DNA from: Deinococcales bacterium
Lineage (GTDB): Bacteria; Deinococcota; Deinococci; Deinococcales; JAAFIG01
Length of the DNA stretch: 64,000 nucleotides
Reading direction: 5' to 3'
Assembly (NCBI GenBank): GCA_025352125.1
Contig: JANXTZ010000058.1
Span: forward strand, 1-64,000
A program made the translations under genes and the position numbers. The notes under the pieces were generated by a model that was given only the letters and a program-made list of their open reading frames with translations, ran no database searches and was not told the DNA's origin. Of this stretch, positions 140 to 22,927 are shown in pieces (the stretch's first letter is position 1; each line of letters opens with the position of its first letter).

Positions 140-376
140 CATGATCGTTATCAAGTGCTTTTAAACGGCTGGACAGACTTAAAGCGTTCGTTTAGTATCG
201 TTGCTCAAATTGATATTCGTGATGGTTTGATTTGGTTGCAGCAAGACAATACTGACCTCGAGTTGGCAAATTGTTTGATTGAGCGCGGGATTCCAAAGGA
301 AAGAATTGTTTTGGGTTTTCATGCGCCGTATAAGCGTGGTTTAAACGGTTTTGGTACGGGTGAAAGCACAAGTTAG
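140..376 (+). pseudogene. xisI: xisI-like gene truncated by IS1 insertion
   Basis: The remnant reads HDRYQVLLNGW, then a VAQIDI segment, LIWLQQDNTDLELA and IPKERIVLGFHAP. This is the C-terminal two thirds of XisI-family proteins, which usually pair with a XisH nuclease-like partner and were first described as fdxN-element excision factors in cyanobacteria. The N-terminal roughly 35 residues are missing: upstream of 140 is the end of an IS1-type element with an in-frame stop at 128-130. GTG at 155 could begin a 73-residue product, but this lacks the start of the fold and a ribosome site. The likely interpretation is a disrupted gene. It overlaps the end of irrE tail to tail. Confidence 0.7.
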
Positions 377-1134
377 GGTTTTAATTCTCGAGTTTCCTTC
401 TCTGGCACTGTGAACACCACAAAAACCACATTCCCTTCTGGGTGCGCGTCCACGACAGCTTTCATTTTCTTGCCGCTTCTGAACGGAATGTAGCTTTCAT
501 CCGTCAGTGGCAATCCAGTCTCGAGCGCCACATGGGCTGGGTGGTCTTCGGGAATGATCGTGCCGTTACTTAACGGGTAGCGCATTTCGCTGCTGCGGGC
601 GCTAAATTCGACCTCCAGCATGTTGCCTTTGGAGCGAAGCACGCCGACAATCGCTTTGCCTTCCAAACTTTGCGCCAGAACTACGCAGGCGGCGGGTCGT
701 GAAATGGTAAAACTTTTGACGATGCGCGGTATCGCCCTTGCGCCTCGTCCGTATTTTTGCAGCAGTGCCTCGAGTTCGGCTTCTGGAACGAGAATGGCGC
801 TTGCGCCGACGTTGCACAGTATTTCGATGGCTTCCTCGAGATCGTCGCCCTGATACGCGTCGTGCAAGTCCGAGAGCAAATCAACGTCCGCCAAAATTAA
901 GGCGTGTGTGACTTCGTGCGCCATTGTGAAGCGTTGCCGCTCGAGGGTCACGGTTTTGGAGATAAAGATCACGTTGCGGTTTGGATCAAACGCGCCGTCC
1001 TTGTCGCCCAAATCGCCGTACTCGAGTTTCGCGCCTATCGCGGCGGCAAGGTCGAGTGGTTCTCGGGCGGGGTGTGAAAGGTTGAACTCGGCAGCGAGTT
1101 CGCGCACTCGGGTTTTGTGCTCAAATAAGACCAA
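373..1134 (-). CDS. irrE: IrrE/PprI, zinc metalloprotease of the radiation response
   Basis: IrrE (PprI) is the Deinococcus protease that cleaves the repressor DdrO after DNA damage. From the TTG at 1134 the protein has 253 residues. The zinc site is HEVTH (His73, Glu74, His77), with Glu104 at the spacing of the third ligand. It sits in the diagnostic stretch ERQRFTMAHEVTHALIL followed by DLLSDLHDAYQG. A helix-turn-helix-like middle and a GAF-like end containing YIPFRSGKKMKAVVDA follow. The frame stays open to 1185, but that segment is the ddrO terminator hairpin. TTG with AGGTG five bases upstream is therefore preferred. It lies just downstream of ddrO on the same strand. Confidence 0.88.
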   Translation of the reverse strand: MVLFEHKTRVRELAAEFNLSHPAREPLDLAAAIGAKLEYGDLGDKDGAFDPNRNVIFISKTVTLERQRFTMAHEVTHALILADVDLLSDLHDAYQGDDLEEAIEILCNVGASAILVPEAELEALLQKYGRGARAIPRIVKSFTISRPAACVVLAQSLEGKAIVGVLRSKGNMLEVEFSARSSEMRYPLSNGTIIPEDHPAHVALETGLPLTDESYIPFRSGKKMKAVVDAHPEGNVVFVVFTVPEKETRELKP

Positions 1135-1147
1135 GACAGCACCTCGA

Positions 1148-1182
1148 AATAAAAATGGGAACGGATTTGAAACCCGTTCCCA
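1148..1182 (-). terminator. Intrinsic terminator between ddrO and irrE
   Basis: On the minus strand, TGGGAACGGGTTT and AAATCCGTTCCCA form a 13-pair stem with one G-T wobble and a minimal loop, followed by TTTTTATTT. It lies 20 bases past the ddrO stop and before the irrE start. It should end ddrO transcripts and make irrE depend on read-through or its own promoter. Confidence 0.75.
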
Positions 1183-1202
1183 CACGTTACCTTAATTTTG
1201 CT

Positions 1203-1592
1203 TTACTCGAGGATGCGTTTTAAATTTCTGTAAATGTCGTACCAGTCTTCTTTGGTTTGTGGGCGCTTGCCGCGAAGTTCGATGCGTGAAAGGCTCGAGA
1301 CCCAATCGGGGGTGATGTGTCCGCCGAGAACTGGGTCGGCGAGCAAGTCTGCCAAGCCTTTTGGCAGGGCGCTGTCGCTGGCATCGCCGTAAAATTCGAC
1401 GGGGGCGAGCAGGTCATTGACGCTGAGGTCGTAGGCGGCTGCCAGGGTTTGCAGCGTCTCGAGGCTTGGGTTGGTGCGTCCACGCTCGAGGTCGCTGAGG
1501 TACGGGATGCTGATGCCAGCGATTTCGGAGACATCTTTGAGGCGTTGTCCGCGTTCGCTTCGGAGTTCGCGCAGTCGTTCGTGTAATTTCAT
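1203..1592 (-). CDS. ddrO: DdrO, XRE-family repressor of the DNA damage regulon
   Basis: DdrO represses the radiation/desiccation response genes of Deinococcus until it is cut by IrrE. The 129 residues match the family's usual length. The N-terminal XRE helix-turn-helix (about residues 7-60) contains [15 protein letters not shown] and [17 protein letters not shown]. The C-terminal dimerisation region contains [20 protein letters not shown] and [12 protein letters not shown], all recognisable from D. radiodurans DdrO. A strong ribosome site (GGAGGA) precedes ATG. A promoter overlapping a perfect inverted repeat at 1651-1669 suggests autoregulation. It is followed by a terminator and irrE, and is divergent from the ddrA-like operon. 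Confidence 0.93.
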
Positions 1593-1650
1593 AATTCCTC
1601 CTTTTGATTTTGTCCCGCGCTGGACGAAGAATGAGCTACTTTTGCCTGGA

Positions 1651-1679
1651 GTTAAATGTTGTATTTAACCCCTTGTGAA
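1651..1679 (-). promoter_or_regulatory. ddrO promoter with overlapping palindrome (candidate autoregulatory operator)
   Basis: Read on the minus strand, TTCACA (1674-1679) and TTTAAC (1651-1656) are separated by 17 bases. The -10 region lies within a perfect 7-5-7 inverted repeat, GTTAAAT-GTTGT-ATTTAAC (1651-1669). The 17-base core TTAAATGTTGTATTTAA has the length and TTA...TAA ends of the Deinococcus radiation/desiccation response motif (TTATGTC-n3-GACATAA), but only about 8 of 14 half-site positions agree. Binding by DdrO is inference. Confidence 0.5.
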
Positions 1680-1725
1680 TTTGAGCGCGGTTTTCTGCTC
1701 CTGGCGAGTGTAGCACCTGAATCGT

Positions 1726-1742
1726 TTACGGTCAAGACGTAA
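1726..1742. promoter_or_regulatory. Candidate radiation/desiccation response motif upstream of the ddrA-like operon
   Basis: The 17-mer TTACGGTCAAGACGTAA has inverted TTACG/CGTAA ends. Its right half GACGTAA differs from the canonical GACATAA by one base. Ten of 14 half-site positions match overall. It lies 13 bases upstream of the -35 box at 1756, in the intergenic region shared with ddrO. Position and neighbours favour DdrO binding; the match alone would occur by chance roughly 20 times in a window this size. Confidence 0.45.
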
Positions 1743-1755
1743 AACTGGCTGACGC

Positions 1756-1784
1756 TTGAACCAATCACGAAATTATGCTATAAT
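1756..1784 (+). promoter_or_regulatory. Promoter of the 1844 gene / ddrA-like operon
   Basis: TTGAAC (1756-1761), a 17-base spacer and a perfect TATAAT (1779-1784) form a strong vegetative promoter. The predicted leader of about 53 bases ends in AGGAGG seven bases before the ATG at 1844. Confidence 0.75.
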
Positions 1785-1843
1785 CGTAATTGTAGAAGAT
1801 GATTTAGTCAGCACGCCATCAAGACGCTCCCAGGAGGCACACC

Positions 1844-2203
1844 ATGCGAATTCTCGAAACGATTGCCCAATCACTGCGCACCCAAAAAATTCACCCAACC
1901 CAGGTTTTCAACGCCCTGATTGAACTCGAGAATGCGGGCGGGGTCACGACCATGTTTGAACTCGAGTACCGCCTGTCGAGGCTGGTTCGTGCCATGTTTG
2001 AACGCAACGACCAAGCCATCAAAATTGCGGAGGCATGGCTCGAGGCGACCCGAGCTTACCTGGATGAATTTGGTCAAACCGCGCCCGTTGTCGCGCCGCC
2101 TGTCGCACTTCACCGCCGAATTCTCGAGGTGGTCAATGCCGCCAGGAAGGTTCGACCTGTGGCGACCAAAGCCAGCAGCGTCTCTCGAGGAGGTGCGCTG
2201 TAA
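1844..2203 (+). CDS. Unknown protein, first gene of the ddrA-like operon
   Basis: I do not recognise this 119-residue protein. It is mostly predicted helix with acidic and basic faces (ALIELENAGGVTTMFELEYRLSRLV, split here as two helices around VTTM), then a Pro/Ala/Val-rich hinge (TAPVVAPPVALHR) and a basic tail. No membrane segment or signal peptide is visible. AGGAGG precedes the ATG and a strong promoter lies upstream. Its TAA overlaps the ATG of the ddrA-like gene by one base, so the two are almost certainly co-translated. A role as partner or regulator of the annealing protein is inference from this coupling. Confidence 0.75.
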   Translation: MRILETIAQSLRTQKIHPTQVFNALIELENAGGVTTMFELEYRLSRLVRAMFERNDQAIKIAEAWLEATRAYLDEFGQTAPVVAPPVALHRRILEVVNAARKVRPVATKASSVSRGGAL

Positions 2204-3096
2204 TGGCTGACACGACCTGCCAGCATCTTTCGCCCGTCGGCGGTTGGTGCAGATTGCAAAACAATTTCAAATGTCCCGCGTCAAAAGGACGCATTGGATG
2301 CCCAATGCCAAACGTTGTCAACCTCGAGGAACGCATTTCAGAGCGTCTCGAGCGCCAGGAGAACACAATGATCGCCCAACACCAAGCGTTTGCCAACCTT
2401 GCTTTGCCTTTTCCAGCCTCAGAGATTGACTGGAAGATCGAAACCATTTCAAAAGACGCCCGCCGTGCGCTGGTGCGCCCCGTGTTGCCCGCTCGAGCAA
2501 TAATTGATCGCCTCGATGCCGTGCTTGGTGCAAGTGGCTGGTCTGACAGTTATGAAACCCACCCGAGTGGTCAAGCCAAATGCAAACTCTCGGTGCTTGG
2601 GGTCAGCAAAGAGGACGTGTCAGAACGCGCCACCAACTGGAAAGATGCCCTGAATGAGAGTCTAACCCGTGCCGCCAGCAAATTTGGCATCGGACGCACC
2701 CTGGAGCGCATCAACGCCGTCTGGGTTGACTATGACGAGAACACTGCGCGAATCCTCGAGCAACCCATGCTGCCCGATTGGGCAATCTCGAGCGAACCTG
2801 TTAGTGTGCTCAGATCACTCGAGCCTCGAAAATTTGTTGCGCCGCAAACGCCAGTCAGCGCGGAAGTGGTTTCAAGCGATTCAAATATCTCAAGGATGCC
2901 AGCCCCAAATCCCGACAAACTCCTGGCAGAATTGATTCGTAGCGTGCGCGAATTACCGGGCGGCGAGAACGCCCTGAAGCGCATCATTCAACGTCAAAAC
3001 TGGCAACGCATCTCGCAGGAAGACAAGCGCAAACTGTACAGCGAATTGCGCCGCACCCACCGCGAACTTTCTGAACGCCTGCCGCAAAGCGCTTGA
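2203..3096 (+). CDS. DdrA/Rad52-like single-strand annealing protein
   Basis: DdrA is a Rad52-family protein that protects and anneals DNA ends in Deinococcus. This 297-residue protein carries the core at about residues 66-180: LALPFPASEIDWKI, AIIDRLDAVLGASGW, LSVLGVSKEDVS and AASKFGIGRTLE. The order and spacing match DdrA/Rad52_Rad22 proteins. It differs from D. radiodurans DdrA in an extra N-terminal region with Cys6, His8, Cys16, Cys24 and Cys33, possibly metal-binding. It also has a longer C-terminal tail ending in a basic helical stretch. GAGGAGGTG lies nine bases before the ATG, which supports the long start. It is coupled to the 1844 gene and divergent from ddrO, which suggests damage control. 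Confidence 0.72.
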   Translation: MADTTCQHLSPVGGWCRLQNNFKCPASKGRIGCPMPNVVNLEERISERLERQENTMIAQHQAFANLALPFPASEIDWKIETISKDARRALVRPVLPARAIIDRLDAVLGASGWSDSYETHPSGQAKCKLSVLGVSKEDVSERATNWKDALNESLTRAASKFGIGRTLERINAVWVDYDENTARILEQPMLPDWAISSEPVSVLRSLEPRKFVAPQTPVSAEVVSSDSNISRMPAPNPDKLLAELIRSVRELPGGENALKRIIQRQNWQRISQEDKRKLYSELRRTHRELSERLPQSA

Positions 3097-3104
3097 ACAT
3101 TAAA

Positions 3105-3191
3105 GTGCGACGGTACGTTAATCGCATACCGTCGCACCCAGGAGGGATGAACAAGATTAGTATAGCGAGCTTTTCAAAAGCCAATGGTTAA
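3105..3191 (+). other. Perfect hairpin and 14-codon ORF between ddrA-like and UDG genes
   Basis: GTGCGACGGTA (3105-3115) and TACCGTCGCAC (3127-3137) form an 11-pair perfect stem with an 11-base loop but no T-tract. It is followed by AGGAGGG and ATG at 3147, opening a 14-codon frame that ends at TAA 3189-3191. The strong ribosome site is unusual for a random short frame. A leader peptide or processed mRNA end is possible; no function can be assigned. Confidence 0.35.
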
Positions 3192-3248
3192 ATTTCACAC
3201 CGGAACTCGAGACCCGCGCCAGACGAGGTGCTCGAGTTAAACTTTTTT

Positions 3249-3917
3249 ATGGGTTTAGAAAAATTGAATTTAGAGTTGATTGCTTGTACCAAATGCCCCA
3301 GGTTGGTCGAGTGGCGCGAACGGGTCGGGTGCGAGAAACGGGCGGCGTACAAAGACCAAACGTACTGGGCAAAACCCGTTCCTGGCTTTGGCGACTCAAA
3401 TGCTCGAGTTTTAATTCTTGGACTTGCCCCAGGGGCACACGGCAGCAACCGAACGGGCAGAATGTTCACGGGCGATTCGAGTGGAAATTTCTTGTACCCA
3501 GCGCTTCACCGTGCGGGTTTTGCCTCAAGCGCAGTTTCGGTCAGCCGTGATGACAAACTCGAGTTGTTTGACTGCTACATCACCGCCGCAGGTCGTTGCG
3601 CCCCGCCCGACAACAAGCCCACACCACTTGAGCTTCACAACTGTAGACCTTGGTTGACCCAAGAACTCGAGTTGTTGCCGAACGTGTGCGTGATCCTGGC
3701 GCTCGGGAAAATCGCCCATGACACGATGCTCGAGTTTTACGGTTTGCAAAAATCCAAACATCCCTTTGGTCACGCACTCGAGTACCTGCTGCCTGACGGA
3801 AAATTACTGCTCGACTCGTACCATGTTTCGCAACAAAACACGCTGACGGGAAAGCTTACGGTTGAAATGTTCGACGCGATTCTCGAGCGAGCCAAAACAC
3901 TGATGGAGCAATCCTGA
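3249..3917 (+). CDS. Uracil-DNA glycosylase, family 5 (UdgB type)
   Basis: Family-5 enzymes remove uracil, hypoxanthine and related bases from DNA and carry a 4Fe-4S cluster. The motif GLAPGAHGSNRTG (residues 58-70) with FTGDSSG is diagnostic. The C-terminal motif is SYHVSQQNTLTGKLT, where family members usually have HPS; the substitution P to V is slightly unusual. Cys13, Cys16, Cys117 and Cys132 fit the cluster ligands. From ATG 3249 the length is 222 residues; GTG at 3228 would add seven. It lies downstream of the ddrA-like gene and overlaps the next gene at the stop codon, consistent with a small repair operon. Confidence 0.85.
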   Translation: MGLEKLNLELIACTKCPRLVEWRERVGCEKRAAYKDQTYWAKPVPGFGDSNARVLILGLAPGAHGSNRTGRMFTGDSSGNFLYPALHRAGFASSAVSVSRDDKLELFDCYITAAGRCAPPDNKPTPLELHNCRPWLTQELELLPNVCVILALGKIAHDTMLEFYGLQKSKHPFGHALEYLLPDGKLLLDSYHVSQQNTLTGKLTVEMFDAILERAKTLMEQS

Positions 3918-6170: not shown

Positions 6171-6319
6171 TGAGGATGAATTCTAAGTTGTGCTGGACGG
6201 TGTTTTGATTGCCCAAGAGATGAGGCTGAAGGCAATCAGAATTTATCCAGAGTTCATCTTGAACTAATGAATTACGTGTATAACAGAATATGGAGATGGT
6301 TTTCCAATCTGGAGGTTTT

Positions 6320-6799
6320 GTGAAAATACTCGAAACAGAAATTCAAAGCTGGCTCAAATCAAGCAAACGACACCAGGACGCCCTGGACATCGCCACCCTT
6401 GGACACCGCCGCGCCAACCGTCGCCTCAAGGACGCCCGTGAATCGTTAGACGAAGCGGTAGCCGAACTGTACGGCGAGGGCGAGATTGCTGGGCGCAACA
6501 AAGAAGCACGCGACGCCTGCCTGCGCCGATTGACCGTCATGGAACGTGCCGAACTTCACGAAGCCGAAGCCGCATACGATGAAGCCGTCTTTGCGCTCGA
6601 GCGGGCAAGAGCCGATCTCTCGAGGGACAGGCAAGACCGTTACGGCTTGCAGATGCGTGTCGCCTTGGCGACCACTTTTCCACCGTACATCGACAATTCG
6701 CAGCGCATTGAGCGCCATCCCCAAGTTTTGCCAACGACGATTGAGGCTGTGACATTGCCGCTCTTTGGTCAAGCCAGCGATCTGCCAAAAGCGAGCTAG
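6320..6799 (+). CDS. Unknown alpha-helical, coiled-coil protein
   Basis: No family is recognised. From GTG 6320 (GGAGG four bases upstream) the protein has 159 residues. Residues about 15-115 are highly charged and predicted to form long antiparallel helices or a coiled coil (RRANRRLKDARESLDEAVAE, YDEAVFALERARADLSRD). The last 45 residues are proline-rich and non-helical. There is no signal peptide or membrane segment. The frame is open to 6290, but the ribosome site decides the start. A structural or nucleic-acid-associated role is possible. Confidence 0.6.
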   Translation: MKILETEIQSWLKSSKRHQDALDIATLGHRRANRRLKDARESLDEAVAELYGEGEIAGRNKEARDACLRRLTVMERAELHEAEAAYDEAVFALERARADLSRDRQDRYGLQMRVALATTFPPYIDNSQRIERHPQVLPTTIEAVTLPLFGQASDLPKAS

Positions 6800-13463: not shown

Positions 13464-15974
13464 TTACAATTCAGTGTTGTCTGTTTCGTTCTCAGAAATC
13501 TCTTCAGCATCGCTCGAGATTTCAGTTGTTTCAGTTGTCCCGTCCGCCATCAAGCTTTCCTCTTGCTTGATCGAGAAGGCGCTGGTCACACGGTCGCTGT
13601 CGCCCATGCGCATGACTTTGACGCCTTGGCTCGGGCGTCCGTAACTCGAGATTTGCTCGATTCTGGTGCGAATCGCCACGCCGTTGGCGCTAATCACCAT
13701 CAATTCTTCGTCGCCGCCAACCCGCTCGAGTGACACGAGTTTGCCGGTCTTGTCGGTGACTTTGAGCGTGATGACGCCCTGTCCGCCGCGTCCTTGCAGT
13801 GGGTATTCTTGAATGGCGGTGCGTTTGCCGTAGCCATTTTCGGAGATGGTCAGCAACTCGCCGTCATCATTGGCGCTGACTTTGGTCATGCTGACCACCT
13901 CGTCACCGTCGCGCAAGCGAATGCCGATCACGCCTTGGGTGGCGCGTCCGGTGGCACGCACGTCGTCTTCGCCAAAGCGGATGCTTTGCCCGTCACGTGT
14001 GGCAAGTACGACGTGCTCATTGGTGTTCAGGATCGAAACGTGAATCAGATCGTCGTTCTCGAGCAGGTTGATGGCGATCAAACCAGAGCTGGTCATGTTG
14101 CCGTATTCCTTGATTTCGGTTTTCTTGACAATGCCCTGGCGCGTGCAAAAGGCGAACGATCCCTCCTGCTCGAGGTCTTTGATCGACAGAATCGACTTGA
14201 CGTTCTCATCGTCTTTAAGCGGCAGCACATTGCGAAGGTGCGCCCCCTTGGCATCGCGTCCGGCTTCGGGCAATTCAAAGATTTTCTCGCGGTAGACGCG
14301 TCCCTTGTCGGTGAAGAACAGCAGGTAATCGTGGGTGCTGCCAACGATCAGGTTGGTGTTGGCGTCCTCGTCGCGCAACTTGCCAGAATTTGCGCCGCGC
14401 CCACCACGTCCCTGTGAACGGTAAGCCTCGAGCGTCGTGCGCTTGATGTAACCACCCTTGGTCACGGTAATCACCATGTCCTCAATGGCAATCAGGTCTT
14501 CTTTATTGATGTCTTCGGACAGGTCGGTAATTACGGTGCGGCGCTCGTCGCCGTACTTGTCACGAATGATCGTGATTTCTTTTTTGACCTCGTTCCAGAG
14601 TTTGCCCTCGTCTGCCAGAATCGACTCGAGAAAACCGATGGTCTCTAAAAGTGCGTTGTATTCGTCGTTCAATTTGCCGCGCTCGAGTCCGGTCAGACGT
14701 TGCAAGCGCATGTCCAGAATAGCTTGGGCTTGAATTTCCGAGAAGCTGAAACGTGCCATCAATCCGTCTTTGGCTTCCGCGCCCGTTTGCGCGGCGCGAA
14801 TAATCCGAATGATCTCGTCGATGTTGTCAAGTGCAATCAGCAGTCCCTCGAGAATATGGGTGCGCTCTCGGGCTTTTTTCAGATCGTACCTGGCGCGGCG
14901 GGTAACCACGTTTTTGCGGTGATCCAGGAACAGCGTCATGCCTTCTTTGAGTGCCAATACCTTTGGTGCGCCATTGACAATTGCCAAGTTGATGATGTTG
15001 AAACTGGTTTGCAATTGCGTGTGCTTGTAAAGTTGGTTCAAGACCAAATCTGGCAGCGTGCCGCGTTTGAGTTCGATCACAATGCGAACTGGCGTGGTGC
15101 GATCTGATTCGTCGCGCAGGGCGGCAATATCAGGGATTTTGCCCTCGCGGTACTGCGCCGAAATGGTGGTCAGCAGATTGGTTTTGTTAACCTGATACGG
15201 AATTTCGGTAATCACGATCTGGCTGCGACCCTTAATTTCCTCAATTCTTGCTTTACCGCGTACCCGAATGCTGCCTTGACCGCTCGAGTACGCTTCACGG
15301 ATGCCTTTTTTGCCGAGCCGTCCACCGGTTGGGAAATCTGGTCCTGGCACAATTTTCATCAGATCATCCAAGTTGATCTCTGGATTGCGGATGATCTCGA
15401 GCAGACCATTGCAAATTTCGGTCAGGTTGTGCGGCGGAATGTTGGTCGCCATGCCCACGGCAATCCCGACCGCGCCGTTGACCAGCATGTACGGAAAGCC
15501 ACCAGGCAGCACGGTTGGCTCTTCGGTGGTCTCGTCAAAATTCGGTTTGAAATCCACCGTCTCTTTTTCGATGTCCTCGAGCATCACCTCGGCGGCTCGG
15601 GTCATGCGGGCTTCGGTGTACCTGTAGGCGGCGGCAGGGTCGCCGTCGATGCTGCCGAAGTTGCCTTGACCGTCCACGACTGGGTAGCGCAAGTTCCAGG
15701 ATTGCGCCATGCGAACCATCGCCTCGTAAATTGGGCTGTCGCCGTGCGGGTGGTATTTTTTGATGACCTCACCGACCACACCCGCGCTTTTTTGGTGCTT
15801 GCGTCCTGGCGAAAGCCCCTCTTGAAGCATGGCGTACAGAATGCGGCGCTGCACGGGTTTCAAACCGTCGCGCACGTCGGGCAGCGCACGGTCCACGATT
15901 GTGGACATGGCGTAATTGATGAATGCGGTTTTGACTTCATCGGTAATTTCGACAGGTATGACGGCGTTTGACAT
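13464..15974 (-). CDS. gyrA: DNA gyrase subunit A
   Basis: GyrA cuts and rejoins DNA to introduce negative supercoils together with GyrB. At 836 residues it has the winged-helix/tower core with catalytic Tyr119 ([10 protein letters not shown]). The quinolone region [20 protein letters not shown] has Ser80 and Glu84 at the E. coli Ser83/Asp87 positions, the quinolone-sensitive type. The C-terminal pinwheel contains a GyrA-box-like QGRGGRG. The final 25 residues form an acidic Ser/Thr/Glu tail. GGAGGA precedes the ATG. gyrA belongs to the DdrO regulon in Deinococcus, and a candidate operator overlaps the -35 box at 16103-16119. Confidence 0.96.
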
Positions 15975-16081: not shown

Positions 16082-16119
16082 ATCATACCATTTCAAAGTG
16101 CATTCTGTCTACAGCAGAA
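16082..16119 (-). promoter_or_regulatory. gyrA promoter with candidate DdrO operator
   Basis: On the minus strand, TAGACA (16106-16111) and TATGAT (16082-16087) are spaced by 18 bases. The -35 lies inside the imperfect palindrome TTCTGTCTACAGCAGAA (plus strand 16103-16119). Its left half TTCTGTC differs from TTATGTC at one position; the whole matches the response motif at 10 of 14 half-site positions. Operator overlap with the -35 is a sensible geometry for repression. Confidence 0.45.

Positions 16120-20917: not shown

Positions 20918-22927
<2,010 letters not shown>

What the first reader, a model, noticed from the sequence alone, without database searches (positions are those of the whole stretch)
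373..3096. DNA damage response island: irrE, ddrO and a ddrA-like operon side by side
In D. radiodurans and D. deserti, as I recall, irrE and ddrO are far apart. Here the protease gene lies directly downstream of the gene for its substrate, and the ddrA-like operon is divergent from ddrO. This puts sensor/protease, repressor and a likely effector in 2.7 kb, similar to ImmA-ImmR pairs of mobile elements from which the system may have arisen.
Basis: partly seen in the sequence, partly recalled or inferred. Interest (0 to 1): 0.75.

Follow-up and report, generated by a model that had tools for sequence, protein, structure and literature searches.

The report
Ancestral IrrE–DdrO damage-response control locus
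This is the bacterium's ordinary radiation/DNA-damage switch (a repressor, DdrO, and the protease that destroys it, IrrE) sitting next to a DNA-repair gene it controls; the side-by-side order is not unusual but widespread in this bacterial order and probably ancestral, with Deinococcus itself being a lineage that broke it apart.

Summary
Window 373-1134/1185(-) is an IrrE/PprI orthologue, 1203-1592(-) is DdrO, and a divergent unit follows: a small gene (1844-2203, at the position of Deinococcus ddrQ) and a Rad52-like DdrA homologue (2203-3096). Each is single-copy in the 4.5-Mb genome. Two DdrO-type operators (RDRM) lie in the divergent intergenic region, over the ddrO -35 and the ddrQ-ddrA -10. 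Further sites precede cinA-ligT-recA, uvrB, uvrD, recQ, nurA-herA, a dinG-like helicase, gyrA and ligA. So this is the chromosomal radiation/desiccation-response control locus, not a paralogous mobile pair.

The gene order is not special to this genome. ddrO and irrE are neighbours (same strand, ddrO first) in 29 of 34 genomes of the phylum sample that have both. The ddrQ-like gene is divergent from ddrO in all four families with the system. The linked state is most simply ancestral, lost in Deinococcus/f2 and in a sister genus. I found no published statement of this in the searchable library.

Lineage-specific details: a terminator-like hairpin between ddrO and irrE, loss of two of three ssDNA-sensing arginines in IrrE, and a conserved Cys/His module fused to DdrA. 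The system is known; the arrangement is mildly informative.

The parts
   Evidence: PDB 8slm/3dte 3e-61/5e-59; Pfam Peptidase_M78 1.8e-16; start
1155..1183 (-). terminator-like hairpin between ddrO and irrE (13-pair stem followed by TTTTTATTT)
   Evidence: fold z-score -3.9, 0 of 200 shuffles as stable
1203..1592 (-). ddrO: XRE repressor, 129 aa, with intact IrrE cleavage motif RIEL|RGKRP (L106/R107)
   Evidence: PDB 6jq1/6rnx/6rmq ~1e-62 to 1e-64; motif RIELRG(K/R)RP in all 35 DdrOs compared; cleavage position from PMC4374696
1707..1735 (-). ddrO promoter: TTGACC -17- TACACT
1726..1742 (.). RDRM operator B, TTACGGTCAAGACGTAA, covers the ddrO -35 box; identical copy at the same place in G007; one base from the published D. 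radiodurans ddrA site
1756..1784 (+). ddrQ-like/ddrA promoter: TTGAAC -17- TATAAT
1773..1789 (.). RDRM operator A, TTATGCTATAATCGTAA, covers the -10 of the ddrQ-like/ddrA promoter; 47 bp from operator B
1844..2203 (+). small conserved gene, 119 aa, divergent from ddrO in all families with the system; at the position of ddrQ (Deide_20580) of D. deserti
   Evidence: no Pfam hit
2203..3096 (+). ddrA-like gene, 297 aa: N-terminal Cys/His module (C6, H8, C16, C24, C33), Rad52-like core about 60-200, conserved C-terminal helices 237-291
6272..6288 (.). RDRM-like site directly upstream of orf169 (6290-6799 +), unknown function
16103..16119 (.). RDRM site upstream of gyrA (13464-15974 -)
20918..20934 (.). 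weaker RDRM-like site (TTATGCTGAGAACATAT) overlapping the start of ligA (20933-22927 +)

Best explanation
This is the control locus of the chromosomal radiation/desiccation (RDR) response. DdrO dimers sit on two RDRM operators 47 bp apart and block both divergent promoters, its own and that of the ddrQ-like/ddrA operon, as well as distant RDRM promoters (cinA-ligT-recA, uvrB, uvrD, recQ, gyrA, others). After damage or oxidative stress, metal-loaded IrrE cuts DdrO between L106 and R107, DdrO can no longer dimerise, and all these promoters open; resynthesised DdrO shuts the response off again. The neighbourhood ddrQ-like <- -> ddrO - irrE is most likely the ancestral arrangement of the order, kept here and taken apart in Deinococcus. 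Shown here: gene identities, single copies, operator sequences, operator/promoter overlap, regulon sites, conservation of catalytic and cleavage residues, distribution of linkage. Inferred: DdrO binding, cleavage, induction, termination between ddrO and irrE.
For: IrrE and DdrO orthology; the DdrO+IrrE tree places them as sister of f2 plus Deinococcus; single copies. HEXXH..E and the RIELRG(K/R)RP cleavage motif are invariant (PMC4374696). Operators: only 8 TTAYGN7CRTAA in 4.5 Mb, two of them in this 251-bp intergenic region; scored with a matrix made only from published Deinococcus sites the two give 16.0 and 15.2 against a shuffled mean of 4.6, 1 of 3000 shuffles as good. Both overlap promoter hexamers. 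The two best sites are 47-52 bp apart in 19 of 34 genomes, including all four f1 genomes. Regulon: sites at cinA-ligT-recA, uvrB, dinG-like, uvrD, recQ, nurA-herA, gyrA, ligA; in relatives gyrA, ssb, ddrB. No LexA DNA-binding domain found in the own genome. Linkage: 29 of 34 genomes; ddrQ-like gene divergent from ddrO in f1, f2, f3, f4.
Against: No expression, binding or cleavage data for this organism. Total RDRM counts are not above the reversed-pattern control (8 vs 15; 43 vs 76), so only the location of sites, not their number, supports function, and individual weaker sites may be chance. Parsimony alone cannot tell retained linkage from loss and regain in the G000/G007 pair (3 changes either way). 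Deinococcus genomes were not among those searchable; their separated state is taken from the literature.
Confidence: 0.88

Rival explanations
1. The locus is a mobile-element immunity pair (ImmA-ImmR type) or a paralogous copy, with the true irrE/ddrO elsewhere.
For: Same order as ImmR-ImmA pairs; IrrE and DdrO match phage metalloprotease and repressor PHROG families weakly; an XisI-domain fragment lies at the contig end.
Against: No other copy in the genome; DdrO aligned over its full length with Deinococcus DdrO at 1e-64; operators at core repair genes throughout the chromosome; same locus in four families.
Confidence: 0.03
2. The linkage was lost at the base of the Deinococcus-f1-f2 clade and regained in the G000/G007 lineage, so the present arrangement is derived and only looks ancestral.
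For: Equally parsimonious on the gene tree, 3 changes; in f1 the ddrO-irrE gap differs from f3 (hairpin present), and in G007 irrE is not followed by the NUDIX/SDR/folE-type genes seen in f3/f4.
Against: Regaining exactly the same order and strand is unlikely a priori; Deinococcus irrE lies by a folate operon (PMC1978522), as irrE does in f3 (folE, SDR), which fits break-up of an ancestral ddrO-irrE-fol cluster.
Confidence: 0.15
3. irrE is co-induced with ddrO as one operon (adjacency serves co-regulation). This concerns the function of the adjacency and is compatible with the best explanation.
For: Same strand; 68 bp from ddrO stop to the likely irrE start; gaps of only about 34-50 bp in f3.
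Against: A stable terminator-like hairpin lies in the gap, and a hairpin of similar stability in G007 (z -4.1); D. radiodurans irrE is constitutive (PMC1978522).
Confidence: 0.3

Closest known systems
IrrE (PprI)/DdrO radiation-desiccation response of Deinococcus
   Same: Orthologous protease and repressor, invariant catalytic and cleavage residues, RDRM operators, core regulon including cinA-ligT-recA, autoregulated ddrO with a small divergent gene (ddrQ)
   Different: ddrO and irrE adjacent; ddrA operon directly divergent from ddrO; two operators in the ddrO region; IrrE R207 and R267 (D. geothermalis numbering) replaced by E and V; ddrB not found in this genome
IrrE/DdrO homologues of Meiothermus, Calidithermus, Marinithermus, Oceanithermus, Deinobacterium (presence noted in PMC8072749)
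   Same: Same proteins; by my comparison f3/f4 genomes (probably these genera, names not shown) also have ddrO followed by irrE and a divergent ddrQ-like gene with RDRM
   Different: In f4 ddrO and irrE are 0.26-1.9 kb apart, often with a gene between; ddrA is elsewhere except in G008
ImmA/ImmR (ICEBs1) and other COG2856/XRE pairs of mobile elements
   Same: Repressor gene followed by metalloprotease gene; protease inactivates repressor
   Different: No mobile genes seen here, extra GAF-like domain in IrrE, repressor controls chromosomal repair genes
DdrA (Rad52-like) of Deinococcus and Thermaceae
   Same: Rad52/Erf-like core and C-terminal helices; under RDRM control
   Different: About 60-80-residue N-terminal extension with conserved C-x-H...C...C...C, found only in the four f1 genomes

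Membership tests
IrrE/DdrO RDR system | IrrE orthologue with HEXXH..E zinc peptidase and C-terminal GAF-like region | tested here: met
IrrE/DdrO RDR system | DdrO orthologue with the IrrE cleavage site (Leu-Arg in RIELRGKRP) | tested here: met
IrrE/DdrO RDR system | RDRM operator upstream of ddrO (autoregulation) | tested here: met
IrrE/DdrO RDR system | RDRM upstream of core repair genes, above all cinA-ligT-recA | tested here: met
IrrE/DdrO RDR system | Damage- or zinc-triggered DdrO cleavage and induction of the regulon | not testable with these tools
   needs bench work
ssDNA-sensing PprI as described for D. geothermalis (PMC10904395); not a defining feature of IrrE as such | Patch-1 arginines R85, R207, R267 | tested here: not met
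   R85 kept (R83), R207 is E193, R267 is V253; R207 is kept only in the two Deinococcus sequences of the sample
DdrA | Rad52-superfamily core | tested here: met
   PHROG 1097 7.8e-21; homologues reach Pfam Rad52_Rad22 1.5e-18; the window protein itself is below the Pfam cut-off
DdrA | Orthology with DR0423 | not tested
   no Deinococcus ddrA sequence could be fetched
DdrQ | Small gene divergent from ddrO under RDRM control | tested here: met
   sequence similarity with Deide_20580 itself not tested
ImmA/ImmR mobile pair | Location on a phage, ICE or plasmid-like element | tested here: not met
   the contig ends 373 bp beyond irrE, so that side is unseen

The most novel reading that the evidence does not exclude
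In this family the damage switch has been rewired: IrrE, without two of the three ssDNA-sensing arginines, is triggered mainly by released zinc; its dosage is tied to ddrO by read-through of a terminator (attenuator-like coupling); and DdrA carries a redox-sensitive zinc module that both gates annealing activity and feeds the zinc signal.
Probability: 0.07. Interest if true: 0.6.

Novelty: new member of a known kind. Interest (0 to 1): 0.34.

Why it matters
It suggests that the separate location of irrE and ddrO in the model Deinococcus species is derived, and that the core circuit (divergent ddrQ-like gene, two operators about 50 bp apart, ddrO, irrE) is older than Deinococcus and shared with Thermaceae- and Marinithermaceae-like families. 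It also provides natural IrrE variants lacking two ssDNA-contact arginines, a ready test between the ssDNA and the zinc models of IrrE activation.

Tried and rejected
Mobile-element/paralogue reading: rejected. Structure prediction of the DdrA-like protein: mean pLDDT 46, pTM 0.25, not used for any claim except the C-terminal helices; no fold search run on it. orf169 (6290-6799): no reliable family, and no homologue in the f1 relatives. Total RDRM counts as evidence: not above control, so not used. The genome-contig scan returned only three uncultivated Deinococcales MAGs. Plasmid search for irrE found only a weak Burkholderia M78 hit; the two Deinococcus plasmid ddrO copies inspected have no irrE-like annotated neighbour. 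Pfam gave nothing for the nurA and herA candidates; PDB comparison settled them. Literature search for a published statement of ddrO-irrE adjacency outside Deinococcus: none found, but subscription papers (e.g. Ludanyi 2014) are not in the library.
Full report
WHAT IS THERE. The window is the first 64 kb of contig C45 of a 4.53-Mb, 84-contig genome, 92.5% complete. Reading leftwards from the middle of the locus: ddrO (1592-1203, minus strand) and irrE (ending at 373, minus strand). Reading rightwards: a 119-residue gene (1844-2203) and a 297-residue DdrA-like gene (2203-3096), overlapping by one base, so probably one operon. IrrE matches solved IrrE structures at 3e-61 and 5e-59, DdrO matches solved DdrO structures over its full length at 1e-62 to 1e-64. 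The DdrA-like protein matches the Erf/Rad52-like annealing family PHROG 1097 at 7.8e-21; its own Pfam Rad52 score is below the cut-off, but homologues reach 1.5e-18. Each is single-copy in the genome.

THE irrE START. The ORF called from GTG 1185 begins just upstream of, and reads through, a 13-pair hairpin followed by TTTTTATTT (1183-1155), which folds 3.9 standard deviations better than shuffles. A TTG at 1134, with GAGG 7 bases upstream, gives MVLFEHKTRV..., matching MVLNEHKTRV of G007. So ddrO and irrE are 68 bp apart with a terminator-like hairpin between them. G007 has a comparably stable hairpin in its gap (z -4.1), although the terminator consensus scan did not call it. In f3 genomes the gap is only about 34-50 bp and the three examined show no such hairpin. 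In D. radiodurans irrE is constitutive (PMC1978522) and has its own -10 motif next to the start (PMC12340547). Whether irrE is insulated or read through here is inference.

OPERATORS. The published 17-bp RDRM has the form TTAYG-N7-CRTAA in a strict version. That pattern occurs only 8 times in the genome, and two copies are in this one 251-bp intergenic region. A matrix built only from published Deinococcus sites scores them 16.0 and 15.2; shuffled versions of the region average 4.6 for their best site, and 1 of 3000 reached the observed best. One covers the -35 of a ddrO promoter, the other the -10 of the ddrQ-like/ddrA promoter. The site at 1726 is identical in G007 and one base from the published D. 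radiodurans ddrA site. Across the phylum the two best sites upstream of ddrO lie 47-52 bp apart in 19 of 34 genomes; in most of the rest the scan ranked a third, more proximal site second (sequences).

REGULON. Other RDRM sites in the own genome lie immediately upstream of cinA-ligT-recA (L194), uvrB (L197), uvrD and recQ, nurA-herA (L133; NurA 2.3e-24 and HerA 1.5e-227 against PDB 7f6d), a dinG-like helicase (L193), and inside the window gyrA (16103) and ligA (20918). In relatives they precede gyrA, ssb and ddrB. Many of these are published RDR genes in Deinococcus (PMC5552922, PMC8533742). ligT and recA were named from their position and by eye from the translation, not by a library search. 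Site counts as such do not exceed the control pattern (8 vs 15, 43 vs 76), so the argument rests on location. No LexA DNA-binding domain was found in the own genome, and DdrB was not found either.

GENE ORDER ACROSS THE PHYLUM. Of 111 genomes, 35 have irrE and 35 ddrO; 34 have both. ddrO and irrE are neighbours on one strand with ddrO first in 7 of 7 f3 genomes (directly adjacent), 20 of 21 f4 genomes (0.26-1.9 kb apart) and 2 of 4 f1 genomes (G000, G007). They are apart in G005, G006, G001, G003 and G031, on contigs whose flanks rule out close linkage. The ddrQ-like gene is divergent from ddrO in f1, f2 (G001), f3 and f4, as Deide_20580 is in D. deserti (PMC5552922). The ddrA-like gene follows it in all four f1 genomes and in G008. 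On a DdrO+IrrE tree, f1 is sister to f2 plus Deinococcus, and linkage needs three changes: three losses, or one deeper loss, a regain and a loss. Retention is the more likely because the order and strand are the same and because irrE lies near folate-type genes both in f3 (folE and an SDR) and in Deinococcus (PMC1978522). The genus Deinococcus was not among the searchable genomes; its separated state is from the literature.

LINEAGE-SPECIFIC POINTS. (1) Of the three arginines needed for ssDNA sensing in D. geothermalis PprI (PMC10904395), only R85 is kept; R207 is E and R267 is V. R207 is present only in Deinococcus in this sample; R267 is kept in the f4 genomes. (2) The f1 DdrA proteins share an N-terminal C-x-H-x7-C-x7-C-x8-C module absent from f3, f4 and Thermus-like homologues; zinc binding is a guess.

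VERDICT. A real and canonical IrrE/DdrO control locus. The system itself is known.

Noticed in passing
whole window; also G005-G007 and f2 loci: CTCGAG occurs 403 times in 64 kb (one per 159 bp; about 17 expected from base composition), similarly dense in all f1 and f2 loci sampled and enriched several-fold in f3/f4: a highly iterated palindrome like cyanobacterial HIP1. A search for a paper on CTCGAG palindromes and Meiothermus found none. In coding regions it mostly falls in the frame that reads Leu-Glu.
   Followed up: partly
6290-6799 (+): Unknown 169-aa protein with the best-scoring RDRM of the window 1 bp upstream of its start; no homologue in f1 relatives, weak matches in a few Thermus-like genomes. 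Candidate new damage-response gene.
   Followed up: partly
L189 3090-3320 (-) (G000:C3): 76-aa protein with a likely membrane segment, with two RDRM sites 25 bp apart at its start; no Pfam hit. Candidate damage-induced small membrane protein.
   Followed up: no
L191 about 2986 (G000:C8): RDRM-like site between a gene whose product contains MCGRYTIN (SRAP/YedK-like by eye) and a Y-family polymerase/ImuB-like gene (IMS domain 1.4e-9).
   Followed up: no
155-376 (+): XisI-domain fragment at the contig start (Pfam 7.7e-20, covers profile 45-109 of 110), apparently cut short upstream.
   Followed up: no
3228-3917 (+): Uracil-DNA glycosylase superfamily gene just downstream of the ddrA-like gene; an inverted repeat (about 3104-3138) separates them, so it may not be in the operon.
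   Followed up: no
NC_012528.1 and other Deinococcus plasmids: Extra ddrO copies on Deinococcus plasmids; in the two regions inspected (D. ficus, D. deserti) no neighbour is annotated as an IrrE-like protease, so they may depend on the chromosomal IrrE.
   Followed up: partly
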